A stretch of DNA of 64,000 nt from Luteolibacter sp. SL250. Lineage in GTDB: Bacteria; Verrucomicrobiota; Verrucomicrobiia; Verrucomicrobiales; Akkermansiaceae. The DNA is taken from NCBI RefSeq assembly GCF_026625605.1, contig NZ_CP113054.1, forward strand, positions 1,302,001 through 1,366,000. The letters run 5' to 3'. Positions within the stretch are counted from its first letter, which is position 1, and each line of letters begins with the position of its first letter. The translations under genes were made by a program, and so were the position numbers. This document shows, one piece after another, positions 11,697 to 31,963 of the stretch. The notes beneath the pieces were generated by a model. That model was not told the DNA's origin. It did no database searches and was given only the letters and a program-made list of their open reading frames with translations.

Positions 11697-11983
11697 GTGA
11701 TCTAATAGATAAAATTTGCTTCGGTTGAGAGGCGCTCGATGTTCTCGCTGATTTACTCGATCCCCAGAGGGATCCGATCAGAATTGTTGTTTTTTGGGAG
11801 TAAATCGCGATTTTGCCTGGAGGAGGACCAGGTTCTGTTCTCGATGACTTTGGCGGTTCCTGTTTTGCGGGTTCGGATTCTTTCAGAACGTTCTTTATCT
11901 CATTGTAATGGCGGAACATGGCGACAACTGCATCCGGGGCCTCGTTCGAATCGATGGGATGCGAAGCTCTTCGCGGCTCTCAT

Positions 11984-13645
11984 TCAAATCCATTCAACAT
12001 TTCTTCCGCGTCCGTATTTCTTTTCTTTTTCGTCAGACGTCAGAACCTCCACATCGGTTAGTAAGCAAAGCCAGGCGTCCAGACGGTCAGCCATCCACGG
12101 AGCGCTGTTTTCTCCAATCTTATTCTCCATGCCCGCCGTCGGAACGATGCCAAAATCACTCAACATGAATCGGAGTCTCTGTTTGGGTGCGCCGGGGTCC
12201 AACCGTGAAAGAGCGACTCTCAGATGCTGGGTGAAAACGAGGTCCGCATATAGGTCACGGAAGAATTCGTTCAGCGGTCGATTCATCCGATCCTCCAGCC
12301 ATCCATGAAACCAGCGGATGGAAATCCGGGTTTCTCCTCCCCATGATAGATCCTCGTGGTCGGCAAAGCGCGTAAGCCATATTTTGGTTCGCAGAATCCA
12401 TCGAACCAGCATCCCGAAAGCCCGCGGACATTCGTCCTGAGCTTCTCCAGCCCCCATGTCGATCCAGTCGTAGTGATTTGAGTCGCCCGAGATATTAGAG
12501 TTCCACCAATTGGACGCTGCCTCTATGGCAGAGGGGGCATTGGCGGCTAGACACTCCCGCCGAATACCGTCCGCCAGCGATAGTGGAGTATCTCCCAGCC
12601 AGGACAGGGTCGCGTTTACCACATCATCGACAGAAGAGCATCCTTCCCTCACGGCCAGTTCGAAAACTCGCAGGAAGGTTTCCAGAATATAACGCTGAAA
12701 CTGCCTGCCTTCGAAGATTGCCCAAGAAGCTCTCTGGTGTTCAAGCATGGGATCTGTGAGTACCAATGGCGCATTCTTTTTGACGAGACCCGTGAACCAC
12801 GTGCGGCGGAGGTCCTCGGAATCCGCGGCGCCGATTTGCTCAAGCGTATCGATTATCAGGCGGGTAGTGATCCTACGACCGTTCGGCAGCCCATTCGATA
12901 CGTTTCCGAGAAGCAGCCGAATGAGGGATTGTTTTACGTTCTGAGGCGCGACACGGAATGCGGCTGGATGGAGTCCTTGAAGTTGCAAGTTTTCGAGGTC
13001 TTCGTGCGCCCGAACCTCGAAATCCAACCGCCCGAACTGGACAAGCAGCGGGTCATCACTCAGTCGGGACTCGATATATTCACAGATCCGGTCGGTTTCT
13101 TCATTGGAAATGGGGACATGAATCCAGGTCGCGTGACCGTCCTTCGCCGTCGCGTATCCGATGAAATCGAGATACCGGAGAGCAGGGCCGTAAAGCGCAG
13201 CCGCGTAGATGCTGGTCGATTCGGTTCGCTTGGTCTTTTTCTCGTCCTTATTTTTATCGAAGCTCAGGACAGTCGGGAAGACGAGCGTTTGATCCACTCC
13301 AATTCTGCGGTTCGGCATTCCGAATTTCTCGTTCGCTTCGGAGTTGTCTTTCACTCCGTCGGCCATGGCCATTTCAATAGCTTGCCGAAAGCGGTCGTAG
13401 TTCTGTTGAGAAAATTTCTTCGGCTGTCCCTCGCATATCCGTTGAAATTTCCAAGCAATCCAAGCTCCCAAGCAAAAAATGCCGATGTCAGTGGTGGCGT
13501 TGTTCACTCCGGGCAAGAGGGTCCCGGCCAGCATATCGAAGTTGACCAAGCGAAGCCCCAGAAAATCGATGCCGCCACCATCGTCGGCAAACGCCTGCGT
13601 CAGGAAGGGCTGTTGGGGAAGCGGTTTGAGGGCTTTAGGCTTCAT
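11984..13645 (-). CDS. Unknown 553-residue partner of the PLD nuclease
   Basis: I do not recognise the family. Start ATG 13645 is chosen because it overlaps the end of the PLD gene by 11 bases and opens a sensible N-terminus (MKPKALKPLPQQ). Around residues 25-65 the sequence GGGIDFLGLRLVNFDMLAG and GIFCLGAWIAWKF suggests an alpha-helical or membrane-proximal domain. The rest is mixed alpha/beta and rich in Trp and Arg towards the C-terminus (WFHGWLEDRMNRPL), with no nucleotide-binding loop visible. The overlap with the nuclease gene implies translational coupling and probably a complex or a toxin/regulator relationship. It could be a target-sensing subunit; this is inference from gene order. 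Confidence 0.7.
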   Translation of the reverse strand: MKPKALKPLPQQPFLTQAFADDGGGIDFLGLRLVNFDMLAGTLLPGVNNATTDIGIFCLGAWIAWKFQRICEGQPKKFSQQNYDRFRQAIEMAMADGVKDNSEANEKFGMPNRRIGVDQTLVFPTVLSFDKNKDEKKTKRTESTSIYAAALYGPALRYLDFIGYATAKDGHATWIHVPISNEETDRICEYIESRLSDDPLLVQFGRLDFEVRAHEDLENLQLQGLHPAAFRVAPQNVKQSLIRLLLGNVSNGLPNGRRITTRLIIDTLEQIGAADSEDLRRTWFTGLVKKNAPLVLTDPMLEHQRASWAIFEGRQFQRYILETFLRVFELAVREGCSSVDDVVNATLSWLGDTPLSLADGIRRECLAANAPSAIEAASNWWNSNISGDSNHYDWIDMGAGEAQDECPRAFGMLVRWILRTKIWLTRFADHEDLSWGGETRISIRWFHGWLEDRMNRPLNEFFRDLYADLVFTQHLRVALSRLDPGAPKQRLRFMLSDFGIVPTAGMENKIGENSAPWMADRLDAWLCLLTDVEVLTSDEKEKKYGRGRNVEWI

Positions 13646-16346
13646 GAATTTCCAGAATGACGCTGAGGAGTTCCGGCACGAGGGCGGTGCCACAGGCAGA
13701 GCAGATACAAGGAATCAGGCTTTCGATGGGTCGGAGCGTAGGCTCGCGGGTATTGGCATTGGAGCATCCGTCCTGCACACACATGGGGCGCAGATGATTG
13801 ACAATCTGGATTGAGTTTCCTTTTGCCTTCCGCTCCAGTCTTCGACGAAACTCAGCCCAATTGACGATGCGACCGAATGACTCTGGCTTCACTTCATCGC
13901 CGTTGGCTGCGGCGCGGATTGTTTGGAGGTAACTGAATCCCGGATAGTTTTTCCAACTCTTGTGCTCCATTGCCGTGAGGGCCGAGTCTAGGCCCTTTAA
14001 ACCAAAGCCTCCTTCCGATCTCGGCAAGTAATGCAAAGCATGTTCGAGGACTTCCGACTTCGTCGTTTCATCGAGCGTGAGCGAAAGCCCGGTGAAGTGT
14101 CGGAATTTCAACCACACCAATAAAGGAAACCCTTCGTCGTTTCGGGCGTCAGCATGGAGGATCGCAAACAAGGCTACGCCAAGAAGAATCAAATCGTGGG
14201 GAGCTTCCAGTTCGGGATCGTCCATGATGTCCTGGAGAATCGGCGGGAACTTCCAGTGTCGATACGGATGGGCTTTGGGAGTAACCCAAGTGTCGGGCTG
14301 GCTGCGATCATCGACCAGCAGGCGGAGGAAACCGGAAATGAGGTCGTTGGTTAAAACGACGGGGACCCCTTCGTCGACAGTCCCGTTGCCTGGATGGAGC
14401 AGCAGGGTGATGAGCAACGTCTGGAATGCAACCGGTAGCAGGCGTTCTTTGTGCGGCATTTCGAATTCCTCCGCGCGTTTGCCCTTAGAGCAGGGCCTCG
14501 CGTAAATGACGGCGCCATTCATCCGTTGGGTGAGAGTCGAATAGTAGCGCTCCGCATCCCGCCAGCGTCGGATTCTTGAACTTGTCGCATCATCTTCTTT
14601 GGGCTTTTTGGGTTCGTTAGGCTTGGCCCTCTCGCCGCCTTCCTCCCCCTCGGTATCGGAAGGCTCCATTTCGCGTACGGCGCTGACCGTCTCCTTGGGT
14701 TTTTCACGAAGCAGAGAAGTCATGATTCGTTGGAACCACGCAACATTTCCACCAGCATGCTGGCCCTGGCGCCCGGCATTCTCGTCGACCGCAACCGGTG
14801 GCCAAATTGGCACCCTGACCGGGCGCTCTTTTTCAGGAGTCGTGGTGGAACTGCTCGGGTGGAATCCTTCATTTATGTCCTCCGCGTCCAGAGTTTGGAA
14901 GCAAAGCCGGAAGATCGCATTGATGCCGGCGGCTTCGGGCACCTCCTCGCCCGACAACAAGGCGCGCATCGCAGCCGCCGCGTTCCGTTGGAGGGGCGTG
15001 GCCGTTAGGTCGGCAAAGCTCTCCACCAGAGCGAATGAGCGGAATTCGTCGCCCGTAGCTTTGGTTCCCTTGATCTCCACGGCTGCGGCATTCATCGACC
15101 CCTCCAACCAGCCCGGGTATTGATCGCTTCCCAGTCGTTCAAGAGTGCGGTCATGAAAGAGTCTTCCGTACGAGCGGGTTTCTCGTTTTGGGCCGCAGAT
15201 CCAGGTGGCACTCACGTTCTCCAACGGCAGAGCGTTTTGATGTGTCGAATCCACACCGAGAAAAATGCCGGACGATTTCAATACGGCGTGAATTCCGATC
15301 CAGCCTGTCCCGCTGCTGGAATAGTCCGGGGGAGCGTGTGTTAGTGGTTTCCTGGGAATGAAAGCCGCGAAGAGCGAGTCAAACACCGGTCGGTCGATTT
15401 TTCGCAGGACTGCGGCTTCGATATTCTTGCTCTCCAATGCTGCCATGGTGGCGTTGACGCTTCCAGTCATGGAGAAACATCCGCCATTCCGATCCACCAA
15501 ACCGTATAGCTTCAGATGGGCAAAGCGGCCCGAATTGCCCTTGTGTCCCTGGAGACCAAGCTGGCGAAGTGGTTTCTTTTGCCACTGTTCAAGTTCCTTG
15601 GGTTCCAGATCCACACCCTCTCCTTGTTTAGCTGGGAACACCTCGATGTCTTTGGCTCCGAGTGTCCTCGCAAGGTTTTTTACTCCCTCTAGGCCACCGC
15701 CGAAGTAGGGTGAGGCCACTCGGAGTTCGCGGCAGTCGACCACCTTGGCGAGTTGTTCTGCGAAACCGCCTTGGAATGATGAAAGAAACCATAGCTTGCG
15801 GGATTTCTGCGCCTGGTTGCTTTCGTGAAGATCTTCCAGGAGGCGTATCATTGAAACGATGGTCTTTAGCCCGGGGCGTTCCTGTTGCTCCCGCAGCGAC
15901 CACATTCCCAGCAGTCCCTTCACGAACTCCGTGAGTTCCCGACACAACTCTCTATCTCCGCCGCCTCGAAACACTTCAAAGGTTTCGAAAAGCTCAAGAT
16001 TGTTGATGAATCCGGATTGCGTGAGATTGCCGCTGCCGCAGAGCACGGCCACCTGGTCGTTGTCCGCCATGATCCAGACCTTCGGGTGAAAAGCTCCGGC
16101 GCAGTTCGGATAGACCAGCGAGTAGATGGTGGACGCAGCGCGCAGCGCCCCCACTTCCTGAGCTGCCATCTGGAAACCTTTCAAATCGCAGAGCACCACC
16201 GCTCCTGCTAGATTCCGTCGATCGATTTTCGGCAGGATAGAGGTCTCGAAAAATACCGGACTGGCGGTGTAGCTGGTTCCCAATACGTAGCGGGGAGCGA
16301 ACCGCTTGAAGAACTCGGACAGTTTCCATTGAGGGGTTTCAGTCAT
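13635..16346 (-). CDS. Phospholipase-D-type nuclease with C-terminal zinc ribbon
   Basis: 903 residues from ATG 16346; the frame is open upstream to 16520, but MTETPQWKLSEFF begins the conserved part. Two PLD/HKD-like half-sites are visible. The first is His87-x-Lys89 (FHPKVWIM) followed by GSGNLTQSG. The second is His277-x-Lys279 (AHLKLYG) followed by GSVNATMAA. The missing Asp of a full HKD motif is usual in PLD-like nucleases. A charged, proline-rich linker (about 570-610) leads to a helical C-terminal half. The protein ends with a Cys cluster (CVQDGC, then CICSACG), consistent with a zinc ribbon. The architecture suggests a DNA- or RNA-cleaving effector. It is coupled to the 553-residue protein by an 11-base overlap and preceded by the DUF3883 gene. 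Confidence 0.8.
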   Translation of the reverse strand: MTETPQWKLSEFFKRFAPRYVLGTSYTASPVFFETSILPKIDRRNLAGAVVLCDLKGFQMAAQEVGALRAASTIYSLVYPNCAGAFHPKVWIMADNDQVAVLCGSGNLTQSGFINNLELFETFEVFRGGGDRELCRELTEFVKGLLGMWSLREQQERPGLKTIVSMIRLLEDLHESNQAQKSRKLWFLSSFQGGFAEQLAKVVDCRELRVASPYFGGGLEGVKNLARTLGAKDIEVFPAKQGEGVDLEPKELEQWQKKPLRQLGLQGHKGNSGRFAHLKLYGLVDRNGGCFSMTGSVNATMAALESKNIEAAVLRKIDRPVFDSLFAAFIPRKPLTHAPPDYSSSGTGWIGIHAVLKSSGIFLGVDSTHQNALPLENVSATWICGPKRETRSYGRLFHDRTLERLGSDQYPGWLEGSMNAAAVEIKGTKATGDEFRSFALVESFADLTATPLQRNAAAAMRALLSGEEVPEAAGINAIFRLCFQTLDAEDINEGFHPSSSTTTPEKERPVRVPIWPPVAVDENAGRQGQHAGGNVAWFQRIMTSLLREKPKETVSAVREMEPSDTEGEEGGERAKPNEPKKPKEDDATSSRIRRWRDAERYYSTLTQRMNGAVIYARPCSKGKRAEEFEMPHKERLLPVAFQTLLITLLLHPGNGTVDEGVPVVLTNDLISGFLRLLVDDRSQPDTWVTPKAHPYRHWKFPPILQDIMDDPELEAPHDLILLGVALFAILHADARNDEGFPLLVWLKFRHFTGLSLTLDETTKSEVLEHALHYLPRSEGGFGLKGLDSALTAMEHKSWKNYPGFSYLQTIRAAANGDEVKPESFGRIVNWAEFRRRLERKAKGNSIQIVNHLRPMCVQDGCSNANTREPTLRPIESLIPCICSACGTALVPELLSVILEIHEA

Positions 16347-16444
16347 TTCGATAGGGATCTCAAAGTTGCTTTCGATATACCAGCACTGGTGCTGTTCTTG
16401 AAAGCTTGTTGTCCGATGAAGTCCCAAATCGTCCGCGACGATGA

Positions 16445-17089
16445 CTATATTCTGTGTCTTAGAAGTTGAACGCGATAAGCCGTAGGTTCGACTACGCAGC
16501 TGTCGATTTCCCACGCCCATAAAACCTCCAACGTCCCGCCCGAAGCAATGCGCGAATCGCCAAGCCCCGAGATCTTGATACCGTAAACGATAAAGAGGGC
16601 GGTCTGTCCCTTTTCTATCCGGTGGAGCTCAACTTCATTTCGGGTCATAAGGATGGCATCACACAGATTGCTCGTGGTACCTTTTACCTCGATTTTCACT
16701 CTTTCCTCTCCCTTTTCGGCCTCAAAGTCGTAGGGGTTAGATGCCGATGTGTCTCTCACGCGATATCCACGGGTCGTTAGCCACGCGGAACCCAGCTCCA
16801 TGGCACGGAGCTCGACGCGTTTCCTATCAGGAGCCGACAGCCCCCCAAACCCCTGCCCGCTCTTTTTCGTGAGGGGGTTTGTAATTTCGATCATGGCGAT
16901 TTCGTCCTGATCCGCTGGAGAGAGTTCACGTCCATCCGCTTCGGCTCGATAGATGGTCGCAAGTACCCGACCCAATAACCGGGGGTGGACCGTCGGTGTA
17001 TGAAAGCGTGTCACCCGGACGCCCGAATCGGCTAACCCAACTTTCCGCTTCTGGGAGCAAAATGACTCTGCTAGAAAGAATTCGCTCAT
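16445..17089 (-). CDS. DUF3883 protein, putative PD-(D/E)XK nuclease
   Basis: 214 residues from ATG 17089. The C-terminal 130 residues match DUF3883: RAMELGSAWLTTRGY, NPYDFEAEKG, then IEVKGT, where Asp and E-x-K would form a PD-(D/E)XK-like metal site, followed by MTRNEVEL. DUF3883 is common in restriction and defence loci. The start is supported by a GGAGGA ribosome site about 10 bases upstream, but that site lies inside hsdM, and the two divergent genes share the four bases CATG at their starts. An alternative is that the gene lost its natural 5' end when the hsd operon arrived. The N-terminal 80 residues are not recognised. Confidence 0.75.
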   Translation of the reverse strand: MSEFFLAESFCSQKRKVGLADSGVRVTRFHTPTVHPRLLGRVLATIYRAEADGRELSPADQDEIAMIEITNPLTKKSGQGFGGLSAPDRKRVELRAMELGSAWLTTRGYRVRDTSASNPYDFEAEKGEERVKIEVKGTTSNLCDAILMTRNEVELHRIEKGQTALFIVYGIKISGLGDSRIASGGTLEVLWAWEIDSCVVEPTAYRVQLLRHRI

Positions 17090-18761
17090 GCCCGATTCTT
17101 CCTCCCAAGCCTTCCTCCGCGAGCTCGACAAGAAACTCTGGACCGCCGCCGACAAGCTGCGGTCGAACCTTGATGCCGCCGTTTACAAGCACGCCGTCCT
17201 CGGTCTCATCTTCCTCAAATACGTCTCCGATTCATTCGCCGAACGGCAGAAGGAGATCGAGGCGATGCTAAAGGATCCCGAGAATGACTTCTACATGGAC
17301 CCCGCTGACCACGGCGGAGCTGCCGGTTATCAGAAAGCTATTGATCAGGAACTGGAGGAGCGGGACTACTACATCGAGAAAAACGTCTTCTGGGTGCCGG
17401 CGCTGGCGCGGTGGAAGACCTTGCAGGATTCCGCCAAGCTCCCGGCGGGAACCGAGATCACCGTGAAGAACGGCAAGGTCTCGAAATACAAGATCACTTC
17501 CACCGGCAAGCTCATCGACGACGCGCTGGAAGCCGTGGAGAAGGAGAACCCGAAGCTCAAGAACGTCCTCAACAAGAACTACACGCAGCTCCAGATCGAT
17601 CCGGCGAACCTCGCGGGGCTCATCGACCTCATTGCCACCATCCCGTTCCAGCACGCGGACCTTCACGCGAAGGACATCCTCGGCCACGTTTACGAATATT
17701 TCCTCGGCCAGTTCGCCCTGGCGGAGGGGAAAAAGGGGGGGCAATATTTCACGCCCAAGTCGATCGTCAGTCTTATCGTGGAAATGATCGAGCCCTATCA
17801 GGGGCGCGTCTATGACCCGGCGATGGGCTCCGGCGGCTTCTTCGTCCAGTCGGAGCGCTTCATCGAGGAGCACGGCGGCATCATCGGTGATATCATGGTC
17901 TTCGGGCAGGAAAGCAATCCCACCACCTGGCGGCTGGCGGCGATGAACATGGCCATCCGCGGCATCGACTTCGATTTCGGCAAGGAACCGGCGGACACTT
18001 TTACCCGCGACCAGCACCCGGACCTCCGCGCGGACTTCGTGATGGCGAATCCGCCCTTCAACATCAAGGCATGGTGGGACGGCAAGCTGGAGGGCGACGC
18101 ACGGTGGAAATACGGCACGCCGCCGCAGGGGAATGCCAACTTCGCCTGGGTCCAGCACATGCTCCACCACCTCGCGCCGAATGGCTCGATGGCGCTGTTG
18201 CTCGCCAATGGCTCGATGAGTTCGAATTCCAGCGGCGAGGGTGACATCCGCCGCGCCTTGATCGAGGCGGATCTCGTCGAGTGCATGGTCGCCCTGCCCG
18301 GCCAGCTCTTCACCAATACCCAGATTCCCGCCTGCATCTGGTTCCTCACGAAAAACAAAGCCAAGCGCTCCCGTCCCGGGGCCGCCGCCCTGCGCGACCG
18401 CCGCGGTGAAACGCTCTTCATCGACGGCCGCAAGCTCGGCTTCATGAAAGACCGCGTGTTGCGGGATTTCGCTCCAGAGGACGTCGAGAAAATCGCAGGG
18501 AAGTTCCGCGAATGGAGGACAGGTGGTTACGAGGATGTTTCCGGTTTTTGTAAATCTGCGACAAATCAGGAAACTGCCCTCAGCGGTCATATCTTAACTC
18601 CGGGTCGATATGTCGGTGCTGAAGACGTTGAGAATGATGGCGAAGCCTTCGAAGACAAGATGTTGCGTCTTGTGACTGAGCTAAATTTGCAATTTACCGA
18701 AGCTGCGAAACTTGAGAAGACCATCACCGGAAATCTGAGAGGACTTGGATATGAAGGGTAA
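17088..18761 (+). CDS. hsdM: Type I restriction-modification DNA methyltransferase subunit M
   Basis: 557 residues, full length for HsdM. The N-terminal helical domain (FLRELDKKLWTAADKLRSNL, then KYVSDSF) is followed by the methyltransferase core. The SAM-binding motif I is YDPAMGSGGFF near residue 242, after QYFTPKSIVSLIVEM. The catalytic NPPF of gamma-type N6-adenine methyltransferases starts at residue 321. The M subunit methylates adenine at the site chosen by HsdS and forms the M2S or R2M2S complex. The gene is clearly GC-rich. Its 3' end overlaps hsdS. The start codon overlaps that of the divergent DUF3883 gene. Confidence 0.95.
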   Translation: MPDSSSQAFLRELDKKLWTAADKLRSNLDAAVYKHAVLGLIFLKYVSDSFAERQKEIEAMLKDPENDFYMDPADHGGAAGYQKAIDQELEERDYYIEKNVFWVPALARWKTLQDSAKLPAGTEITVKNGKVSKYKITSTGKLIDDALEAVEKENPKLKNVLNKNYTQLQIDPANLAGLIDLIATIPFQHADLHAKDILGHVYEYFLGQFALAEGKKGGQYFTPKSIVSLIVEMIEPYQGRVYDPAMGSGGFFVQSERFIEEHGGIIGDIMVFGQESNPTTWRLAAMNMAIRGIDFDFGKEPADTFTRDQHPDLRADFVMANPPFNIKAWWDGKLEGDARWKYGTPPQGNANFAWVQHMLHHLAPNGSMALLLANGSMSSNSSGEGDIRRALIEADLVECMVALPGQLFTNTQIPACIWFLTKNKAKRSRPGAAALRDRRGETLFIDGRKLGFMKDRVLRDFAPEDVEKIAGKFREWRTGGYEDVSGFCKSATNQETALSGHILTPGRYVGAEDVENDGEAFEDKMLRLVTELNLQFTEAAKLEKTITGNLRGLGYEG

Positions 18762-20046
18762 TGGGGAAATTATCCAACTTCGCGACGCTTGTTCGAAGAT
18801 TGGTAGCGGATCCACACCTCGGGGTGGTAAGGAAGCTTACAAGGGCGGTGCAACGTCATTAATCCGAAGCCAGAATATCTACAATGATGGTTTTCATCGT
18901 GACGGCCTCGTATACATTAGCGACGAACAATCTGCAGAACTCCGAAACGTCGAAGTCGAACCAAAAGACGTATTGTTGAACATCACCGGCGATTCTGTTG
19001 CAAGGTGCTGCCAAGTCGCGGCAGATATATTGCCTGCCCGCGTGACCCAACATGTTGCAATCATTCGCCCGGACCCCAGAATACTCAATGCTGACTTTCT
19101 TCGATACGTTCTGGTTTCACACGAATACCAGCAACGACTGCTCGCTCTTGCTTCCGCTGGTGCAACGCGTCCTGCGCTGACAAAGTCAATGATTGAAGAG
19201 TTGGATATTCCATCTCCACCTCTATCTCAACAGAAGCGGATCGCCTACATTCTCGGCACGCTGGACGATAAGATCGAATTAAACCGCCAGATGAACGCCA
19301 CGCTGGGGTCGATGGCTCGAGTCCTCTTCCAAAGCTGGTTCGTGGATTTCGATCCCGTTCGAAGAAACTCCGATGGCGAAGCCCAACGACCGGAAGACTC
19401 GTTGTTTCCTGATTCGTTTGAAGATTCTTTGCTCGGATCGATTCCAAATGGCTGGAGGGTCAAGCAATTGTCGGAACTTTGCACTCTCGGCCGGGGTGCA
19501 TCGCCGCGACCCATCAACGATTACATGGACGGTGAGGTCCCATGGATTAAAATTGCAGACGCAACGGCCGCTGCCGGACCATTTCTATTTGAGACGAAAG
19601 AGAGAGTGAAGAAGTTAGGAGCGGCCAAAAGTGTTCCAGTTGCTCCCGGAGATTTGATCCTTTCGAACAGCGCCACCTGTGGCGTGCCGATCTTTGTCGA
19701 GTTCCACGGCTGCATTCATGACGGCTGGCTCTACTTCAAGGACCTCCATTCAATTTCAAAGCTCTACCTCTTCCACGTGTTGATCGAATTGGCCGATCAC
19801 CTCATCAATATCGCAGACGGCTCCGTTCAAAAGAATCTGAATACCAACTTGGTTGGGCAGCAGAATGTCTTGGTGCCTCCACGCGAAGTTTTGGACGCAT
19901 TCGAGCTTCATGCATCTGGGTGGTTCAGCAAGATCCGAGCAAATAGCCTCGAATCCCGCACCCTCGCCAATCTCCGCGACACGCTACTGCCGAAGCTTTT
20001 GTCCGGCGAACAAACGGCGCTACCTGCATTCGATCCCAAACCATGA
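18751..20046 (+). CDS. hsdS: Type I restriction-modification specificity subunit S
   Basis: 431 residues from ATG 18751, which has a GAGGA site 7 bases upstream and overlaps the hsdM end by 11 bases. It has two target-recognition domains, each starting with the usual IxxGxxP segment (KIGSGSTPRGG and TLGRGASPRPI). Each is followed by a conserved helical spacer: PPLSQQKRIAYILGTLDDKIELNR ending the first half (shown here in two parts as PPLSQQKRIAYILG and TLDDKIELNR), and NLRDTLLPKLLSGE at the C-terminus. HsdS reads a bipartite DNA target and anchors HsdM and HsdR. Base composition is mixed, with A/T-rich parts in the recognition domains, as expected for exchanged modules. The stop overlaps the next gene as ATGA. 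Confidence 0.94.
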   Translation: MKGNGEIIQLRDACSKIGSGSTPRGGKEAYKGGATSLIRSQNIYNDGFHRDGLVYISDEQSAELRNVEVEPKDVLLNITGDSVARCCQVAADILPARVTQHVAIIRPDPRILNADFLRYVLVSHEYQQRLLALASAGATRPALTKSMIEELDIPSPPLSQQKRIAYILGTLDDKIELNRQMNATLGSMARVLFQSWFVDFDPVRRNSDGEAQRPEDSLFPDSFEDSLLGSIPNGWRVKQLSELCTLGRGASPRPINDYMDGEVPWIKIADATAAAGPFLFETKERVKKLGAAKSVPVAPGDLILSNSATCGVPIFVEFHGCIHDGWLYFKDLHSISKLYLFHVLIELADHLINIADGSVQKNLNTNLVGQQNVLVPPREVLDAFELHASGWFSKIRANSLESRTLANLRDTLLPKLLSGEQTALPAFDPKP

Positions 20047-21878
20047 GCGAAGAATATTCATTTCCAACACTTGAGGAGATTGATTCGGTGGGTTGGGAGT
20101 CGGCAGTCTCTAGTGCTGAGTTACCCATTTGCCATAAGTTCTCCAGAATCTTCTTTGATCAGTTTCGTGCCCATCAAGATCAAAAAGAAATCGTTCCGGC
20201 GAAAGTATACCGCTTTCTTGGACAGATTTCTTCAATGAGCCTTGACGCAGGAAGTGTCGATTCACCATTGGGTCCAGCAATGGTTACTACGACGGGGAGG
20301 ACCACGGATGTCGGAGATTTTGATGATGTTGCTCTATCGACAATTCAAGGGTTGATGGGGAAGGCGACTATTCCCGCTCTGCGGGCCCGTCTTGGCGATA
20401 TTGTATGGATTCGGAAAAAGGATCACGGTGGAGCCATGGTTGCTGCGGTGGCCTACCTCGAAGAGTTCAAGATGCTTGATGCTCTGAACAAGTGGGTATG
20501 GGCGATAACGAATCTTGAGCGCGGGTTCAGTCTGGCGAGAATTCTCGGATCTAAGAACCCTTTGTTTCAGGATTACGTAGACTTTATTTTAAATCGTCTT
20601 ACTGAGCTTCAGAATTCGTGTGATGACGCTTTTTGCGCCCGTTTGCTCTCAATGCTTGTAGAGCAACGTTCTGGAGATGCTAAAGTTCTAGCGCAAATTG
20701 CCGAGTCCATCGGGACACGCTTGGAACAAGCTGCTTCAGATTTCCTGGCCCGGCAGTATTTCGATATCGCAGTGAGCTGCTTCGAGTGGGCAAAGGAGGA
20801 TGAGAACGCACGACGCATCAAACGATTAAAGGGGGACTCGCTTGTGCGTTTGGCCGAAAAATGCGTCAGCAATGGCCAAGGCTATTTTTCAGCTACTCAT
20901 CACTTGGCTGTTGGTATCGAATGTTTGCGACAAGGTCGAGACGAAGCAGATCGAATCCAGCGACTCCACAAGATGCTCTTGGACTGGCAATCAAAGTCGC
21001 TAGACGAAATGCAGACACATACCCACGAAACGAATGTGTCCGAAATGATCGAAATTGCCCAAAAGAACGTTTCTGGGAAATCTCTTCAGGGGGCTGTCTT
21101 TGCAATGGCGATGGGCCATAATCCAATCGATACGGAAGCCTTGCGAAAGCGTGTGCTAAACCAGATTGACGAATTCCCCATGGCCAGCATTTTTGACGTT
21201 ACGATGATGGATTCGGATGGGCGGGTTGTAGCGAACAAGCAGTCTGTATTTAATGCGAGTGAGGAACACAAGGAAGCTGCAATCGAAGCGGAAATGTTCC
21301 ATCAAGCTGCGCAGATCGACTGGAGTCTTAGGTCTCAAGCCTATATTGATGTAAGCAGGAGACAAATTTGGATCGAACATCGTCCGACGCACAAGGATCT
21401 TGAATTTCTTGTTTTGCAGAATCCCTTTATTGCTCCAGGGCATGAGGCGTTGTTCCTGAAAGGTATCGTATGCGGGTTTCGCGGCGAGTTCGATATCGCA
21501 GCACATCTCTTGGTTCCACAGATTGAAGAAAGTATTCGGTATGTTCTCAGACGCGCAGGACATGTAACGTCAAAACTTGATGCGAAATTAATTCAGCAAC
21601 AGCGTTTGCTAGGGACGCTTTTGGGCATGCCGGAAACAGTGGAAATATTTGGCAAAAATCATGTTTTTGAGCTGCGTGGATTACTCTGTGAGAAGTTTGG
21701 GTATGACCTAAGAAACAAACTCGCCCACGGCTTTCTCACATACAACGCGTGCTGGGGCGCTGATGTAATAAATCTCTGGTGGCTGGTGCTTCGCTTTCTG
21801 TGCATCCCACTTCGGGTGCAGGACGGCAATCCCGGTGAAGAGGGTGCCTCGAAGCCTGATACTGACCCCGAGGCATAG
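20043..21878 (+). CDS. DUF4209-type protein with R-x4-H motif, inside hsd operon
   Basis: 611 residues, starting at an ATG that overlaps the hsdS stop (ATGA), so it is coupled to HsdS production. The C-terminal quarter fits DUF4209: IVCGFRGEFDIAAHLLVPQIE, LRRAG, ETVEIFGKNHVFELRGLL and YDLRNKLAHGFL, with WWLVLRFL at the end. Within this, Arg557-Asn-x3-His562 matches the R-x4-6-H motif, with a polar second residue, that marks HEPN ribonucleases. Relation to HEPN is my inference. The N-terminal 450 residues are helical and unassigned. DUF4209 proteins are found beside type I restriction genes, but no role is established that I know of. Codon use is more A/T-rich than hsdM and hsdR. Confidence 0.8.
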   Translation: MSEEYSFPTLEEIDSVGWESAVSSAELPICHKFSRIFFDQFRAHQDQKEIVPAKVYRFLGQISSMSLDAGSVDSPLGPAMVTTTGRTTDVGDFDDVALSTIQGLMGKATIPALRARLGDIVWIRKKDHGGAMVAAVAYLEEFKMLDALNKWVWAITNLERGFSLARILGSKNPLFQDYVDFILNRLTELQNSCDDAFCARLLSMLVEQRSGDAKVLAQIAESIGTRLEQAASDFLARQYFDIAVSCFEWAKEDENARRIKRLKGDSLVRLAEKCVSNGQGYFSATHHLAVGIECLRQGRDEADRIQRLHKMLLDWQSKSLDEMQTHTHETNVSEMIEIAQKNVSGKSLQGAVFAMAMGHNPIDTEALRKRVLNQIDEFPMASIFDVTMMDSDGRVVANKQSVFNASEEHKEAAIEAEMFHQAAQIDWSLRSQAYIDVSRRQIWIEHRPTHKDLEFLVLQNPFIAPGHEALFLKGIVCGFRGEFDIAAHLLVPQIEESIRYVLRRAGHVTSKLDAKLIQQQRLLGTLLGMPETVEIFGKNHVFELRGLLCEKFGYDLRNKLAHGFLTYNACWGADVINLWWLVLRFLCIPLRVQDGNPGEEGASKPDTDPEA

Positions 21879-21914: not shown

Positions 21915-23633
21915 ATGGCTCTCTTAAGTCTTATTGAATCAGCGGTAAAGGTCGGTTACAGCATCAAGCTTCTTCAGTATTTGATGAAAGAGTGTCCGAA
22001 GCACAAAGAAAGCCGGGTGCTTCCCTGCCGCGTAATCGACGGCGATCCTTTTATTGAGGAGAAGGAGCTTCTTGCATACCAGCGATATTTAAACGAAAGG
22101 TGGCCAATTCCCAACGGAAAGACGCGACCGCCAATGCGGAAAGCAATCGCGGATGACGTTAAATCAGAATCGCACTACGGGTGCGCAATTTGTGGGAATG
22201 GAAATCATGGAGAAGTTGCCCACATCCATGCTGCTGCAGATGGAGCATGCAACGGTCCTGATAATCTCATTTATTTATGTCCCAATCACCACACTGCTTA
22301 CGATTATGGCCATAAAGTCGCAGCCAACATAAGACGAGAGGTAGTTGATGCTGCGAAAACGATGAAGCGGGATTCGCGGCGTAGAATACTCCGTCACGAA
22401 CTAAATGCGGCCAAGGCGATGTTCGGACTGATTCAGAGAATCAAGAAGATATTGGATCAATTGGGCAAGGAGAAGGAGCTCGACCTGAGGGAGGTTGGCG
22501 TCACAGAAATGCGGTTGCTCATGGCGGAGGTGACTAACGCCTCGGTCAAAGCGAGTGAGGCGGCTCAGAAGGATCAGGATCATACAGAGGTTGAACTTGA
22601 GTTGACAAAAATTGCTCCAAAGATTGCAGCGTTGGCTGGAATCGGGGAAGCTTCGACCTCAGAAAGTGGTTTGCGTGAGGCCGCGACGGAGGTTGTTGCA
22701 GTATCTAATAAAGTTATTATCGATCTTGGGGAAATTGAATGCCCGCATTGTGAGGGAGCAGGTCAATATGGAATGGGAGGGAGCTACTGCTCCTTCTGTG
22801 GAGGTTCCTGCTACGTATCGACTGACCTCGCGGAAGGATATGATCCAAATGATATTGATGAGGTTGCGTGCCCTAGGTGTGAAGGGCATTGCCAGACGGG
22901 GTGGGTCGGAGACCTTTGTGCTTATTGCAAAGGGGATGGATATGTTACCACTGACGAAGCTGATGACTATGATCCGGAAGAAATTGATGAAATCGAATGT
23001 CCGCATTGCGAAGGTTCCGGGAAAATGGGCTTGGCTGGATCACTGTGCTCGGTTTGTGGCGGCTCCTGTTTTGTGCGCCGTGAATTCGCAGCTAGCTATG
23101 ATGAGGCGGAGATTGATGAAGTCGCGTGCCCTAAATGCGATGGAAGCGGCACCATGGGAAGAGTTGGTTCTTATTGTTCATATTGTAAGGGCGATTGCTG
23201 TGTCTCTAGGGAAGAGTTTGATGCTTATGATCCGGAGGACGATGATGAATTTGACTGTCCGCGGTGCAATGGTTCTGGACTAACTGGCTTGGTGGGATCG
23301 TTTTGCTCGTATTGTAAGGGTGAATGTGTCGTCTCCAAGGAAGAATTGGATGATTACGATCACGAAAAAATCGATGAGGTGGATTGTCCGCATTGCGAAG
23401 GAGCCGGTCAGACTGGTTGGGCTGGATCATATTGTCGATATTGCAAAGGGGAATGCGTCGTTTCCCAGTCGAAGTTCGATGATTACAGTCCTGAGGAAAT
23501 TGATGAAGAAGCTTGTCCAAGATGTGGTGGGAGTGGCCAGACGGGTCTGGTCGGTGACACATGCAAGCTTTGTAAAGGGGAGTGTTCAGTGTCTCGTGCA
23601 ACCGCTGAGGCTTATCGAGAGAAATACTGCTAA
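21915..23633 (+). CDS. HNH nuclease fused to seven 43-residue zinc-finger-like repeats
   Basis: 572 residues. Residues about 86-132 form an HNH domain: Cys90-x2-Cys93, His103 in VAHIHA, Asn117, then Cys122-x2-His125-His126, the usual treble-clef zinc and metal arrangement. A helical, charged linker follows (150-270). From Cys276 to the end come seven repeats starting at Cys276, 319, 362, 405, 448, 491 and 534, exactly 43 residues apart. Each unit reads C-P-x-C-x-G-x-G-x2-G-x2-G-x2-C-x2-C-x-G-x-C with small variations, like half of a DnaJ cysteine-rich domain, then an acidic spacer such as YDPEEIDE. Fourteen CxxC pairs could bind seven zinc ions. The gene is A/T-rich and lies between the DUF4209 gene and hsdR. 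A role as extra nuclease with a multivalent binding arm is inferred. Confidence 0.85.
   Translation: MALLSLIESAVKVGYSIKLLQYLMKECPKHKESRVLPCRVIDGDPFIEEKELLAYQRYLNERWPIPNGKTRPPMRKAIADDVKSESHYGCAICGNGNHGEVAHIHAAADGACNGPDNLIYLCPNHHTAYDYGHKVAANIRREVVDAAKTMKRDSRRRILRHELNAAKAMFGLIQRIKKILDQLGKEKELDLREVGVTEMRLLMAEVTNASVKASEAAQKDQDHTEVELELTKIAPKIAALAGIGEASTSESGLREAATEVVAVSNKVIIDLGEIECPHCEGAGQYGMGGSYCSFCGGSCYVSTDLAEGYDPNDIDEVACPRCEGHCQTGWVGDLCAYCKGDGYVTTDEADDYDPEEIDEIECPHCEGSGKMGLAGSLCSVCGGSCFVRREFAASYDEAEIDEVACPKCDGSGTMGRVGSYCSYCKGDCCVSREEFDAYDPEDDDEFDCPRCNGSGLTGLVGSFCSYCKGECVVSKEELDDYDHEKIDEVDCPHCEGAGQTGWAGSYCRYCKGECVVSQSKFDDYSPEEIDEEACPRCGGSGQTGLVGDTCKLCKGECSVSRATAEAYREKYC
22740..23633 (+). repeat. 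Seven in-frame 129-base coding repeats
   Basis: The seven cysteine-rich protein repeats are encoded by units starting at 22740, 22869, 22998, 23127, 23256, 23385 and 23514, with no length variation; the last is cut short at the stop. The DNA copies are diverged from each other, whereas the protein pattern is kept. This indicates old duplications held by selection rather than a recent slippage array. Confidence 0.85.
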
Positions 23634-23648
23634 TTCTAATAAGTGAGA

Positions 23649-26879
<3,231 letters not shown>

Positions 26880-28267: not shown

Positions 28268-28728
28268 GGAATCCCAATGCAGACCTAGAGTCACCCAGTG
28301 CTTTTTGATCCCCGATCATCCTCAAAACGTTGATAATTAGATTGTCGGAGAAAAGTGATCTAATTTGTCGCGCAGTTTTCTTGCGATCTGCTCATTGGCG
28401 TCCAAAAGTTAATCGTCATTCCGACCTGTCCGGCACTAGCCTTGCAGGTTCGTGCGGAAGGGGTAGTTCCCTTCACGGGTAAATCCCTAAAGCGCAGATA
28501 ATGATGGCATAGGATTAACTGCTTCTCAACTTAGGATAACATCTGGATCGCAAGGAGGGCGAAGTCTGGGATCAGACTCCGTCCGACATGCTGCGAAGTG
28601 GTTCATGAAGACCAGACTGACCTCCGGCCTTCATTTGCTCGGCGAACTGCCGAGCGATCTGCGTCTTTCAACCCAAAGCTGTCTTGTCAGCCAAGGGGAA
28701 ACCGCGGCTGAACCACAAACAAAACCAA
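28268..28728 (+). other. Intergenic stretch before the mobile unit
   Basis: 461 bases without a convincing gene. It is A/T-richer than the core chromosome. Around 28553-28575 a short stretch encodes EGEVWDQ, similar to the IS5-type remnant at 10,410, so a small insertion-sequence scar is possible. No tRNA or terminator was seen. It should hold the promoter of the methyltransferase operon. Confidence 0.4.
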
Positions 28729-30045
28729 ATGAAGCAATCTCTAATCATTGAATATGTTCCAATCTGGGCCCTCAAGGTCCACGGCTCGAACCCCCGCAAA
28801 CACAGTAAAAAACAGCTTCGGCAGATCGCTGACAGCATCAAAACCTTCGGCTTTAAAGTGCCGGTTCTAATTGATCAAAACAACCGCCTCATCTGCGGGC
28901 ACGGAAGGGTCGAGGCCTGTCGCTTGTTAGGAATTGAAACCGTCCCGGCCATCCGCGCCGTTGACCTGGATGAGGCCAAGATCAGAGCTTACATGATTGC
29001 TGACAACCGTCTCACCGAAAACGGCGGATGGGATGACATTCTCCTAGGAGAAAATTTCAAGTTCCTGGCAGATCTTGAATTGGACTTCAGCCTGGAAATT
29101 ACCGGATTCGACTACGGCGACATCGAGCAGTTCATCATCGAAGAGGAAGGTTCCACGTCGGGTGAGCCTCCAATACCCGATGCGGAGGATCTGCCAGCGA
29201 TAGCCCACCCAGGCGATCTGTGGTTGATGGACAAGCATCGCCTGTTTTGCGGGGACAGCCTGGCGGAAGAAAGTTATCGCAGGCTGTTTGAGGATCAGAG
29301 TAAGGCAACAATCGTCTTCACTGATCCTCCTTACAACCTCCCGGCGCGAGAAATCGGCAAAACATGTGCTGCCAATCATGGTGCCTTCGCCATGGGCTCC
29401 GGCGAGATGTCCTCGGCGGATTTTACGGACTTCCTTGCCACCGTTTTCGCCCACCTCAAGAAAAATTCGAGCGATGGATCGATTCACTATATTTGCATGG
29501 ACTGGCGTCATGCTGGCGAACTGCTTGCAGCCGGCGGGCGGGTTTATGACGAATACAAAAACCTTTGTGTCTGGACCAAAACGACCGGTGGCATGGGGAC
29601 CTTCTATCGCAGCCAGCACGAGCTGATCTTCGTGTTCAAAAGCGGCAAGGGCAAACACCAGAATCATTTTAAGCTGGGAGAGCATGGGCGCTATCGTACC
29701 AACGTTTGGAAACATCCTTCAGTGATGCATCTGAAATCAGCCGACGGCGACAAGAGCGGGAAAGAGGCCCTTGGGCTGCATCCGACAATCAAGCCAGTCG
29801 GCTTAGTCGAGGATGCGTTACGGGATTGCTCCCGGCAGGGTGAAATCGTGCTCGACGCTTTCCTAGGCAGCGGAAGCACTCTGATCGCTGCTGAGAAGAC
29901 CGGACGCGTTTGTTTCGGGATCGAAATGTCGCCGCGCTACGTTGACGTGGCAATCAAGCGTTGGCAGGAGTGGACGGGCATGGATGCGGTTCATGCACGA
30001 ACGGGCGCTAAGTATGACGAGATCAACAGAGAACAGGCTTTATGA
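28729..30045 (+). CDS. ParB-like nuclease domain fused to adenine/cytosine-N4 DNA methyltransferase
   Basis: 438 residues from ATG 28729. Residues about 8-110 are a ParB/Sulfiredoxin-like domain (NPRKHSKKQLRQIADSI, then LICGHGRVEACRLLG, with the GHGR core). The methyltransferase follows with motif IV TDPPYNL at about 198-204 and motif I DAFLGSGSTLIAAE near the C-terminus. This order, motif IV before motif I, is that of beta-class N6-adenine or N4-cytosine enzymes. Such fusions are carried by prophages and integrative elements. Its stop overlaps the DUF5681 start (ATGA), beginning a three-gene coupled operon. Confidence 0.92.
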   Translation: MKQSLIIEYVPIWALKVHGSNPRKHSKKQLRQIADSIKTFGFKVPVLIDQNNRLICGHGRVEACRLLGIETVPAIRAVDLDEAKIRAYMIADNRLTENGGWDDILLGENFKFLADLELDFSLEITGFDYGDIEQFIIEEEGSTSGEPPIPDAEDLPAIAHPGDLWLMDKHRLFCGDSLAEESYRRLFEDQSKATIVFTDPPYNLPAREIGKTCAANHGAFAMGSGEMSSADFTDFLATVFAHLKKNSSDGSIHYICMDWRHAGELLAAGGRVYDEYKNLCVWTKTTGGMGTFYRSQHELIFVFKSGKGKHQNHFKLGEHGRYRTNVWKHPSVMHLKSADGDKSGKEALGLHPTIKPVGLVEDALRDCSRQGEIVLDAFLGSGSTLIAAEKTGRVCFGIEMSPRYVDVAIKRWQEWTGMDAVHARTGAKYDEINREQAL

Positions 30046-30413
30046 GTGAGGATGCCGACTACGAGGTGGGATATAAAAAGCCACCCAAGAAAAACCAGTT
30101 TCCGAAAGGTAAATCCGGGAATTCCCAAGGGCGGCCTAAGAAGGACAAATCCTTGCAGGAGATCGCGAAGACTATCGGGGGGACCAAATTGATTGCTGAC
30201 GGCAAATCGATCACCCTAACAGAGGCCGTTGTCCGTAGAGCCGCCCACGATGCCGTTAAAAGCGGTGATGCGGGTGCTCGACGATTTTTCGCCGACCTCC
30301 TTTACGACAGTCAGAAGGATCAAATGACACTAGAGGATTTCGAGCCCAACTTGGATGATGAGATCGCAATGCGGGAATTGCTCAGTGCCCACGAGAAAAA
30401 TTCAAAAAAATGA
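30042..30413 (+). CDS. DUF5681 phage-type small protein
   Basis: 123 residues with the family signature near the N-terminus: VGYKKPPKKNQFPKGKSGN followed by SQGRPKK, a basic glycine-rich arm. Then comes a helical region with VVRRAAHDAVKSGDAGARRF. DUF5681 proteins sit just upstream of large terminase genes in many elements, which makes a small-terminase or DNA-binding role plausible. Both ends overlap neighbours in ATGA, so it is made together with the methyltransferase and the terminase-like protein. Confidence 0.85.
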   Translation: MSEDADYEVGYKKPPKKNQFPKGKSGNSQGRPKKDKSLQEIAKTIGGTKLIADGKSITLTEAVVRRAAHDAVKSGDAGARRFFADLLYDSQKDQMTLEDFEPNLDDEIAMRELLSAHEKNSKK

Positions 30414-31399
30414 ATCCTCTGGAATATAGGCTGATGTATCGCTTGAGCTTCAAAAGCTTTGTACGGTTCGCATTCAGGGAATTGAATCCTAAGCTCTCTT
30501 TTCATCCCAACTGGCACATTCCGCAAATGTCCGATCTTCTGCAGGCTTCATTTTTTCATCCTGAAATACCAAAGAGGCTGATTTTCAATCTGCCGCCGGA
30601 CAGTTTCAAGACGCATGTGTGCGCCGTATCATTTCCTGCCTGGCTCCTCGGACGAGATCCTAGGAAATCAGTTCTGATCCTATCCGAATCAATAGATTTA
30701 GCCGAAGAAACAAAAGAACGCTGCGCCGAACTGATGGACAGGCCGCGGTACAAAGCTGTTTTTCATCGGACCAGAATCAAGTCCAACGGTCGGGCGCTAA
30801 CGCTCACTTATGGCGGAGGAATCCGGTATGGAGGCATCGGAAATTCCTGGGGCCACAAGAAAAGTGATATAGTGATTATCGATAATCCTCAGAGCATGCA
30901 CACACAGGGAAATCTTGAGATGGCACGATTCCGGGAAATCGGACGCCTTTTGAAAAACCGTATCGAAGGGATTATTATCGTAGCGACCCGGAGGATAGGG
31001 GAAGGGGATCTAAGCGGGCATTTGCTCCGGCAATCCCAGAAATGGTTACAAATCGCAATTCCAACGGTGGGCTTGAGCGATGAATCCTGGAATCTTTCCT
31101 CTGATGAATACACCCGGCTGACCGGCGAATTGCTGCATCCAGATTACCATGGTTGGAAGTATGTCGAAAGCGAAATTCAGGAGCTGGGAGGCGAGGCGTT
31201 TGCTTATCAGCACATGCAGGGCCTTTATCGTCCACAAACACAGGGCCATCGTCCGGGAATCAACGAGTATGGCGAACCGGTTACATACGTTGGCACCTTC
31301 GACCCCACCCAGGTGACACTGGAAGACTGCCTGAGGTGGAGAGAGAATCATTCGCAGCGGGTTCGGCTGGATTACCCGGAGAAGCTGCCGTATCTGTGA
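30410..31399 (+). CDS. Large-terminase-like ATPase lacking the nuclease domain
   Basis: 329 residues resembling the N-terminal ATPase of phage large terminases: HPNWHIPQMSDLL (the adenine-binding region), NLPPDSFKTH in the Walker A position, VLILSESIDLAEE, and DIVIIDNPQS in the Walker B position. The Walker A loop lacks the usual G before K, and Walker B has Asp-Asn where Asp-Asp is common, so ATP hydrolysis is doubtful. Full terminases have 450-600 residues with a C-terminal RNase H-like nuclease; here the frame ends at KLPYL. No portal, capsid or tail genes follow. It is either a decayed prophage gene or a reduced protein of a satellite-like element. Confidence 0.75.
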   Translation: MNPLEYRLMYRLSFKSFVRFAFRELNPKLSFHPNWHIPQMSDLLQASFFHPEIPKRLIFNLPPDSFKTHVCAVSFPAWLLGRDPRKSVLILSESIDLAEETKERCAELMDRPRYKAVFHRTRIKSNGRALTLTYGGGIRYGGIGNSWGHKKSDIVIIDNPQSMHTQGNLEMARFREIGRLLKNRIEGIIIVATRRIGEGDLSGHLLRQSQKWLQIAIPTVGLSDESWNLSSDEYTRLTGELLHPDYHGWKYVESEIQELGGEAFAYQHMQGLYRPQTQGHRPGINEYGEPVTYVGTFDPTQVTLEDCLRWRENHSQRVRLDYPEKLPYL

Positions 31400-31516
31400 A
31401 GGCTATCCGGTCTGTCGGATTATTTCTGGGACCAATGAAGCCGGGATTCATTGGTCGGCGGAAAAAGACTCCAATGACTTGATCTCTACGGCACGTGGAG
31501 CGTGTGTCACCTGGAC

Positions 31517-31963
31517 ATGCACTCCATTAGCGAACTGGAAAAACTACCAAAAAAGGACCTGCTGGAACTGTGGCACAAGCTGCCGGGAAAGCAGATCCCA
31601 CCCACTCGAATCGGTCGCCTGCTGGCGGAAGTGGCTTACCGCATTCAGGAGCAGCGTTATGGCAAGCTCGACAAGAATACGTCGGTTTCCCTGAGCCGAC
31701 ACATGGCTGCCTTTGAGAAATCCCTGGAGCAGGGGAGGCTGGCGAGGCCGGTAAAATCCAAATCGAAAGTCCGGCTGGAATCGGGATCGTTGCTCAGCCG
31801 GCAATGGGAAGGCCGGACCATCACGGTGCGGAACCACGGGACTCGGGATTTCGAATTCGAAGGGGTGAGATACAAATCACTCACCGCCATCGCGAAATTG
31901 GTCACCGGCCAGCACATGTCAGGCCCGCTGTTCTTCGGGTTGAAGGAGGTGAAGCGTGGCTAA
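31517..31963 (+). CDS. DUF2924 protein, recombinase partner
   Basis: 148 residues from ATG 31517 (GTG 31502 is possible). DUF2924 features are SISELEKLPKKDLLELWHKL, shown in parts as SISELEKLPKKDL and LELWHKL, an alkaline basic middle (VKSKSKVRLESGSLLSRQWEG), and the small C-terminal domain FEFEGVRYKSLTAIAKLVTG. Proteins of this family are nearly always encoded just before a serine recombinase, as here, with an 8-base overlap. A role as directionality or accessory factor has been supposed from that linkage, but I cannot show it. Confidence 0.85.
   Translation: MHSISELEKLPKKDLLELWHKLPGKQIPPTRIGRLLAEVAYRIQEQRYGKLDKNTSVSLSRHMAAFEKSLEQGRLARPVKSKSKVRLESGSLLSRQWEGRTITVRNHGTRDFEFEGVRYKSLTAIAKLVTGQHMSGPLFFGLKEVKRG
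31943..31951 (+). promoter_or_regulatory. Strong ribosome binding site of recombinase
   Basis: AAGGAGGTG lies 5 bases before the GTG start at 31956, inside the end of the DUF2924 gene. It is the clearest Shine-Dalgarno sequence of the island and fixes the recombinase start despite the non-ATG codon. Confidence 0.8.

What the first reader, a model, noticed from the sequence alone, without database searches (positions are those of the whole stretch)
21915..23633. HNH nuclease with seven exactly periodic zinc-finger-like repeats
Seven cysteine-rich units start at residues 276, 319, 362, 405, 448, 491 and 534, every 43 residues, each with two CxxC pairs in a DnaJ-like C-x2-C-x-G-x-G setting and an acidic spacer. 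They follow a well-formed HNH domain (Cys90, Cys93, His103, Cys122, His125/126). I know of no described restriction-associated protein with this architecture. The repeats could form a multivalent arm that binds DNA, unfolded protein or a phage component and gates the nuclease.
Basis: partly seen in the sequence, partly recalled or inferred. Interest (0 to 1): 0.85.

Follow-up and report, generated by a model that had tools for sequence, protein, structure and literature searches.

The report
Zinc-repeat HNH nuclease in defence loci
A rare, horizontally spread bacterial gene encodes a predicted DNA-cutting enzyme with a tail of 3 to 7 evenly spaced zinc-binding repeats; here it sits in the cargo slot of a restriction operon, and its relatives sit beside Argonaute, Lamassu and other anti-virus systems or inside phages, so it is probably an undescribed accessory defence nuclease.

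Summary
ORF 21915-23633 (572 aa) has an HNH core (C90, C93, H103, N117, C122, H125/H126) and seven 43-residue, four-cysteine units starting at 276, 319, ... 534. The anatomy adds a predicted N-terminal winged HTH (1-60) and an acidic repeat arm (net charge -40). I found about a dozen further sequences with this architecture, from four other bacterial phyla and from phages, with 3-6 units. The zinc-site residues and H103/H126 are invariant; N117 is Gly in one clade. Context is defence or mobile, not only restriction: two type I R-M operons (window; a spirochaete), directly after SPARTA, just downstream of SPARSA, beside Lamassu and SIR2-HerA, near a PRTase/ORC-like locus, in two phage lineages, and in Methylobacteriaceae mobile DNA. 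Related type I operons carry unrelated toxin or defence genes in the same hsdS-hsdR slot. Internal units amplify within each protein (up to 97% DNA identity), while the last unit is shared between proteins. Best reading: an autonomous accessory defence HNH nuclease whose acidic zinc array binds protein. Function is inferred, not shown.

The parts
21915..23633 (+). Gene for the wHTH-HNH-zinc-repeat protein (572 aa)
   Evidence: homologues
21915..22094 (+). N-terminal winged-HTH-like domain, residues 1-60 (excisionase/MerR-type topology)
   Evidence: AF2 pLDDT about 88-95, helix-helix-strand-strand-helix; sub-threshold HTH_17 matches in two homologues, E=0.014 and 0.0076, none in the window protein itself
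22140..22307 (+). HNH (beta-beta-alpha metal) nuclease core, residues about 76-131: C90 C93 H103 N117 C122 H125 H126
   Evidence: PDB profile hit TagI E=0.0065; fold match ScoMcrA, probability 1.00 but E=0.063
22335..22724 (+). Long helical linker, residues 141-270
   Evidence: AF2 secondary structure
22740..22868 (+). Zinc-site unit 1
22869..22997 (+). Zinc-site unit 2
22998..23126 (+). Zinc-site unit 3
23127..23255 (+). Zinc-site unit 4
23256..23384 (+). Zinc-site unit 5
23385..23513 (+). Zinc-site unit 6
23514..23630 (+). Zinc-site unit 7, C-terminal cap unit; groups with the last units of four homologues (99/98), not with the internal units
17088..18761 (+). hsdM, type I methyltransferase
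18745..20046 (+). hsdS, type I specificity subunit
20043..21878 (+). DUF7380 + DUF4209 protein (PADLOC candidate PDC-S39; DUF4209 overlaps a HEPN family, PMC3710099): second cargo gene in the slot
23643..26879 (+). hsdR, type I restriction subunit; starts 9 bases after the stop of the HNH gene

Best explanation
This is a member of a rare, horizontally moving family of accessory defence nucleases. Each protein has an N-terminal winged HTH, an HNH metal-dependent nuclease, a helical linker and an acidic arm of 3-7 zinc-site units. It probably works on its own: the wHTH places it on nucleic acid, the HNH cuts (most likely invader DNA), and the zinc array acts as a multivalent protein-contact surface. 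Contact with a phage or partner protein would recruit or release the nuclease. In this genome it has been loaded, with a HEPN-related gene, into the variable cargo slot between hsdS and hsdR of a type I R-M operon, where it would be co-expressed with restriction. Shown: the architecture, invariant zinc-site and H103/H126 residues, recurrent defence or phage contexts, array turnover, and the slot. Inferred: that it cuts DNA, that the arm binds protein, and that it protects against phage.
For: Full-length homologues keep all HNH metal-site residues and the cysteine pairs. Independent contexts: two type I operons, directly after a TIR-APAZ + pAgo pair, next to SIR2-APAZ + pAgo, beside Lamassu LmuA/LmuB and SIR2-HerA, a P2-like prophage and a second phage lineage. 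Solo copies (L024, L031, phages, Methylobacteriaceae) mean it does not need R-M subunits. About 12 of 16 related type I operons carry other genes in the hsdS-hsdR slot, among them NYN, SLFN_AlbA_2, TIR, RT, RhuM, AbiEii-type AAA and RecQ-like. GC is about 0.49 in the two cargo genes against 0.585 and 0.604 in hsdM and hsdR. The arm carries net negative charge in all 11 sequences tested (-4 to -40) while the N-terminal part is near neutral. The nearest solved relatives of the repeats, anti-TRAP and the DnaJ zinc domain, are protein-binding modules (established knowledge).
Against: No activity or phenotype is known. HNH matches are weak (HNH_2 1.6e-4; ScoMcrA fold E=0.063). N117 of the H-N-H triad is Gly in the Methylobacteriaceae/Sphingomonas clade, so that clade may be slow or inactive. 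Genomic association is not proof of defence: Methylobacteriaceae copies sit near transposases and metal-efflux genes, and the Sphingomonas contig shows no defence gene. AF2 pTM is 0.37 for the full protein, so the arrangement of the arm is unknown. Acidic zinc modules can still bind nucleic acid in rare cases.
Confidence: 0.5

Rival explanations
1. R-M guard, as PrrC with EcoprrI: the nuclease is held silent by the type I complex through the zinc arm and released when a phage anti-restriction protein disables the complex.
For: Position between hsdS and hsdR in a type I operon, comparable to prrC; two type I operons hold the gene and those two copies group together (82/81); PrrC precedent (PMC2610378; PMC3710099); HEPN-related cargo next to it.
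Against: Most copies have no linked type I system, and the two R-M families are distant (HsdM 31% over the shared core).
Confidence: 0.17
2. Modification-dependent (type IV) restriction enzyme: the wHTH reads a modified base or backbone in phage DNA and the HNH cuts; the zinc repeats hold oligomers together.
For: Best PDB fold match is ScoMcrA (probability 1.00, E=0.063) and best HNH sequence match TagI (E=0.0065); wHTH domains with HNH are known in type IV enzymes (PMC10853773, PMC12707154).
Against: No SRA, EVE or proven modified-base domain found; it shares the operon with an N6-adenine-type methylase, so it should not read that mark.
Confidence: 0.14
3. The HNH acts on RNA rather than DNA as an abortive-infection effector, as reported for Septu (tRNA cleavage).
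For: The abstract of PMC13096335 states that Septu cleaves the variable loop of tRNA-Tyr; other genes in this slot are RNA-directed (DUF4209/HEPN, NYN).
Against: No partner ATPase as in Septu; the HNH is nearer to TagI, ScoMcrA and IscB DNases.
Confidence: 0.07
4. Counter-defence or regulatory protein carried by phages and islands (anti-TRAP- or Lar-like), with the HNH fold kept as scaffold.
For: Anti-TRAP-type matches of the repeats (NF058604 5.6e-12, below its cut-off; PF15777 1.6e-14 in L030); phage-borne copies.
Against: Metal-site and H103/H126 residues are invariant, which a scaffold would not need; most copies sit with host defence genes.
Confidence: 0.08
5. Homing-type selfish endonuclease that inserts itself into defence loci.
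For: HNH fold, sporadic distribution, phage copies.
Against: No common insertion site seen, no intron or intein; very different neighbours; the long arm and cap unit have no obvious role in homing.
Confidence: 0.04

Closest known systems
PrrC and other genes embedded in type I hsd loci (RhuM, RloC, HEPN proteins)
   Same: Unrelated toxin or defence gene carried inside an hsd operon, co-oriented and tightly packed
   Different: Different fold (HNH with zinc array, no ABC ATPase or HEPN); most relatives are not linked to type I systems
HNH type IV enzymes ScoMcrA, TagI, McrA
   Same: HNH of the same broad group; possible wHTH before the nuclease
   Different: No SRA or sulfur-binding domain identified; C-terminal zinc repeat arm absent from them
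DnaJ central zinc domain (PF00684)
   Same: C-x2-C-x-G-x-G motif pairs, E=1.1e-16
   Different: No J domain; four core cysteines per 43-residue unit with an acidic spacer, repeated 3-7 times, instead of one 65-residue domain with four motifs
Anti-TRAP (RtpA/AT)
   Same: Four-cysteine C-x2-C-x-G-x-G pair in about 30 residues, a protein-binding zinc module
   Different: AT is a 53-residue free-standing protein; here an array fused to a nuclease
PADLOC PDC-M01B and Septu PtuB-type HNH partners
   Same: HNH in defence loci
   Different: They are encoded beside an AAA ATPase; the PDC-M01B match here lies only in its C-terminal end, and the PDC-M01B relatives examined lack the array

Membership tests
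HNH nuclease superfamily | Beta-beta-alpha metal fold with general-base His and metal-site His | tested here: met
   H103 and H125/H126 invariant, beta-beta-alpha in the model; HNH_2 just above Pfam cut-off (21.9 against 21)
HNH nuclease superfamily | Middle Asn of the H-N-H triad | tested here: inconclusive
   N117 present in the window and most homologues, Gly in Methylobacteriaceae and Sphingomonas
HNH nuclease superfamily | Nuclease activity | not testable with these tools
   No assay possible
DnaJ (Hsp40) | N-terminal J domain with HPD motif | tested here: not met
   No J domain by Pfam; N-terminus is a wHTH-like fold
DnaJ (Hsp40) | C-x2-C-x-G-x-G zinc motifs | tested here: met
   PF00684 1.1e-16, four stretches; second motif often ends in Cys
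Type I R-M subunit | Belongs to HsdR, HsdM or HsdS families | tested here: not met
   No such match; the three subunits are separate intact genes
PrrC-type R-M-embedded effector | Gene inside an hsd operon | tested here: met
   Window (between S and R), and L022 (between M and S)
PrrC-type R-M-embedded effector | ABC ATPase + HEPN anticodon nuclease | tested here: not met
   Pfam finds neither
PrrC-type R-M-embedded effector | Silenced by the R-M complex and released by anti-restriction | not testable with these tools
   Needs experiment
Type IV modification-dependent HNH enzyme | Modified-base reader (SRA, EVE, SBD) fused to HNH | tested here: inconclusive
   wHTH-like domain present but not identified as a reader; no SRA or EVE by Pfam
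Anti-TRAP | Curated model score | tested here: not met
   NF058604 45.6 bits against cut-off 65
PADLOC PDC-M01B | Full-length match including its HNH region | tested here: not met
   Only model positions 291-354 matched best, to the repeats

The most novel reading that the evidence does not exclude
A new kind of adaptable sensor-nuclease: an HNH nuclease whose zinc-knuckle array is expanded and homogenised by tandem duplication, as an evolvable multivalent binding arm, and which is loaded as a portable module onto unrelated immune systems (type I R-M, SPARTA/SPARSA, Lamassu) and temperate phages, binding a shared phage or partner protein to trigger cleavage.
Probability: 0.25. Interest if true: 0.8.

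Novelty: new variant of a known kind. Interest (0 to 1): 0.55.

Why it matters
Accessory genes inside restriction operons and beside short Argonautes have been a source of second-line immune effectors. Here the same small, self-contained protein recurs beside several unrelated immune systems and in phages, with an array whose unit number changes in evolution. If the array binds phage proteins, unit number becomes a readable record of an arms race and a direct way to test how a nuclease is switched by a modular, evolvable arm. The gene is one cassette of about 1.2-1.7 kb and can be tested in ordinary laboratory strains.

Tried and rejected
Close-relative search of viral contigs with the whole protein found nothing, and GenBank phages gave no match. 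The search of the genome's own class gave only weak partial hits near threshold. PADLOC PDC-M01B was followed up and dropped: the relatives found are HNH proteins beside AAA ATPases, without the array. L032 and L033-L037 are unrelated or short HNH matches and were not counted. Foldseek with the full model gave only helical-bundle noise; the N-terminal model gave HNH matches, all with E > 0.001. Literature searches for HNH + CXXCXGXG or zinc-repeat proteins in defence found no description; the library holds only open-licence papers. Rejected: 'R-M subunit', because solo and non-R-M copies exist; 'true DnaJ', because there is no J domain; 'artefact of a recent assembly duplication', because neighbouring units share only 47-67% DNA identity.

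Full report
OBSERVATION. The ORF 21915-23633 encodes 572 aa. HNH-type residues C90, C93, H103, N117, C122, H125 and H126 are present. Pfam finds HNH_2 (1.6e-4) and DnaJ_CXXCXGXG (1.1e-16). One correction: the second motif of a unit usually reads C-x2-C-x-G-x-C, not G-x-G.

ANATOMY. AF2 with ten natural homologues gives an N-terminal helix-helix-strand-strand-helix domain (1-60, pLDDT about 88-95), an HNH beta-beta-alpha core (strands 100-103 and 118-121, helix 123-131), long helices 141-270 and then a regular series of short strands and helices in the repeats. The full-length model is of moderate quality (pLDDT 74, pTM 0.37), so only the domain layout is used. HTH_17 is a weak match in two homologues and is not found in the window protein; calling the N-terminus a winged HTH therefore rests on the model's topology. 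The nearest solved HNH relatives are TagI by sequence (E=0.0065) and ScoMcrA by fold (probability 1.00, E=0.063). The nearest solved relatives of the repeats are DnaJ and anti-TRAP. The repeat arm has net charge -40 here and -4 to -22 in the homologues, while the rest is between -3 and +10. This argues against DNA binding by the arm and for protein binding (inference).

FAMILY. A plasmid tblastn, profile scans of viral contigs and one scan of 84,980 species genomes gave further proteins with the whole architecture: Methylobacterium aquaticum plasmid (L002), Spirochaetes (L022), Hyphomicrobiaceae (L023), Azospirillum (L024), Methylobacterium/Methylorubrum (L025-L028), Sphingomonas (L029, contig end), Ignavibacteriales (L030), Corallococcus (L031); plus viral contigs L007 and L038, and L092, a relative of L007 cut by the contig end. 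L002 and L025-L028 are one near-identical group. Unit counts are 3 to 6 (7 in the window), with a spacing of 41, 42 or 43 that is constant within a protein apart from one degenerate unit in L029. The family is rare: two further profile scans of 385 and 248 genomes found only the seed genomes apart from short HNH hits. The pattern pre-filter makes all these counts lower bounds. In the alignment C90, C93, E100, H103, C122, H125, H126, D130 and K148 are invariant. N117 is Gly in the Methylobacteriaceae and Sphingomonas proteins. The N-terminal tree mixes phyla: window and spirochaete group together (82/81), and a phage copy sits with Azospirillum (84/88). That pattern indicates horizontal transfer.

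ARRAY TURNOVER. In a tree of 51 different units the last units of five proteins form one clade (99/98), while internal units tend to group by protein (25 changes against 41.8 in shuffles). Neighbouring units reach 97, 95 and 95% DNA identity in L022, L007 and L030. So internal units are duplicated and homogenised within lineages while the cap is kept. In the window the units are older (47-67%). The tree has few columns and many weak forks; the cap clade is among the well-supported ones.

NEIGHBOURHOOD HERE. hsdM 17088-18761, hsdS 18745-20046, a DUF7380-DUF4209 gene 20043-21878 (PADLOC PDC-S39), the HNH gene, and hsdR 23643-26879 are co-oriented and tightly packed. DUF4209 overlaps a HEPN family noted in R-M operons (PMC3710099). 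The two cargo genes have GC about 0.49, hsdM 0.585 and hsdR 0.604. I fetched 16 loci around related hsdR genes from the same phylum. By my reading about 12 carry one or more other genes between hsdS and hsdR, including NYN, SLFN_AlbA_2, TIR, reverse transcriptase, RhuM, AbiEii-type AAA and RecQ-like genes. Two have none (L081, L082) and two are rearranged or unclear (L074, L080). None has this HNH gene or PDC-S39 by tblastn. The window gene is therefore cargo in a variable slot, comparable to prrC in EcoprrI (PMC2610378).

NEIGHBOURHOOD ELSEWHERE. L022: hsdM-[gene]-hsdS-hsdR, a distant type I family. L030: starts directly after a TIR-APAZ + pAgo pair, with a SIR2 gene upstream. L023: downstream of SIR2-APAZ + pAgo with a 742-aa HTH gene between. 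L024: convergent with Lamassu LmuA/LmuB, with SIR2-HerA beyond. L031: about 3 kb from an ORC-CDC6-like/PRTase pair. L038: in a P2-like prophage between a CI-like gene and a tail gene. L007 and L092: next to tail genes of two related phages. L002 and L025-L028: mobile-element and metal-efflux surroundings with no defence gene seen. The gene stands alone in several of these, so it cannot need R-M subunits.

MECHANISM. Best supported: a self-contained accessory nuclease of defence loci, in which the wHTH gives a nucleic-acid contact, the HNH cuts, and the acidic zinc array binds protein and recruits or releases the nuclease. The first two steps follow from conserved domains. The last is inference from charge, from the protein-binding nature of DnaJ and anti-TRAP zinc modules, and from array turnover. 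The PrrC-like guard, type IV, RNase, counter-defence and homing readings are ranked in the rivals.

KNOWN OR NEW. Each part is known: HNH, DnaJ-type zinc motifs, R-M cargo slots. The combination was not found in Pfam, NCBIfam or PADLOC as a family, nor in the literature searches I made, which cover open-licence papers only. I rate it a new variant of a known kind (HNH defence nuclease / R-M cargo gene), with membership in DnaJ, anti-TRAP, PrrC and type I subunits tested and not met.

Noticed in passing
L073-L088 (hsdS-hsdR interval of type I operons in the same phylum): The interval behaves as a cargo slot: about 12 of 16 related operons carry different toxin or defence-like genes there; several have no assigned family and could be new effectors.
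   Followed up: partly
window 20043-21878: DUF7380 + DUF4209 protein (PADLOC candidate PDC-S39, E=8e-149) as second cargo gene, overlapping the hsdS stop; HEPN-related by the literature.
   Followed up: partly
window 10692-17155, minus strand: Further defence-like genes divergent from hsdM: DUF4917 (PADLOC PDC-S21, 4e-92), a 569-aa gene with no Pfam match, a 961-aa PLD-domain protein and a 236-aa NO VEIN C-terminal protein.
   Followed up: partly
window 28684-33734: ParB-like + N6/N4 methylase, DUF5681, a terminase-like ORF and a 592-aa large serine recombinase next to the R-M operon: likely part of an integrative element.
   Followed up: no
L023:7767-9995: A 742-aa HTH protein of unknown function between a SIR2-APAZ/pAgo pair and the HNH homologue, ending 5 bases before it.
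   Followed up: no
L079:8653-10188: A reverse-transcriptase gene (RVT_1, 1.3e-11) inside the hsdS-hsdR slot of a type I operon.
   Followed up: no
L029 and L025-L028 homologues, position equal to N117: The HNH Asn is replaced by Gly in this clade although all metal-site residues are kept.
   Followed up: partly
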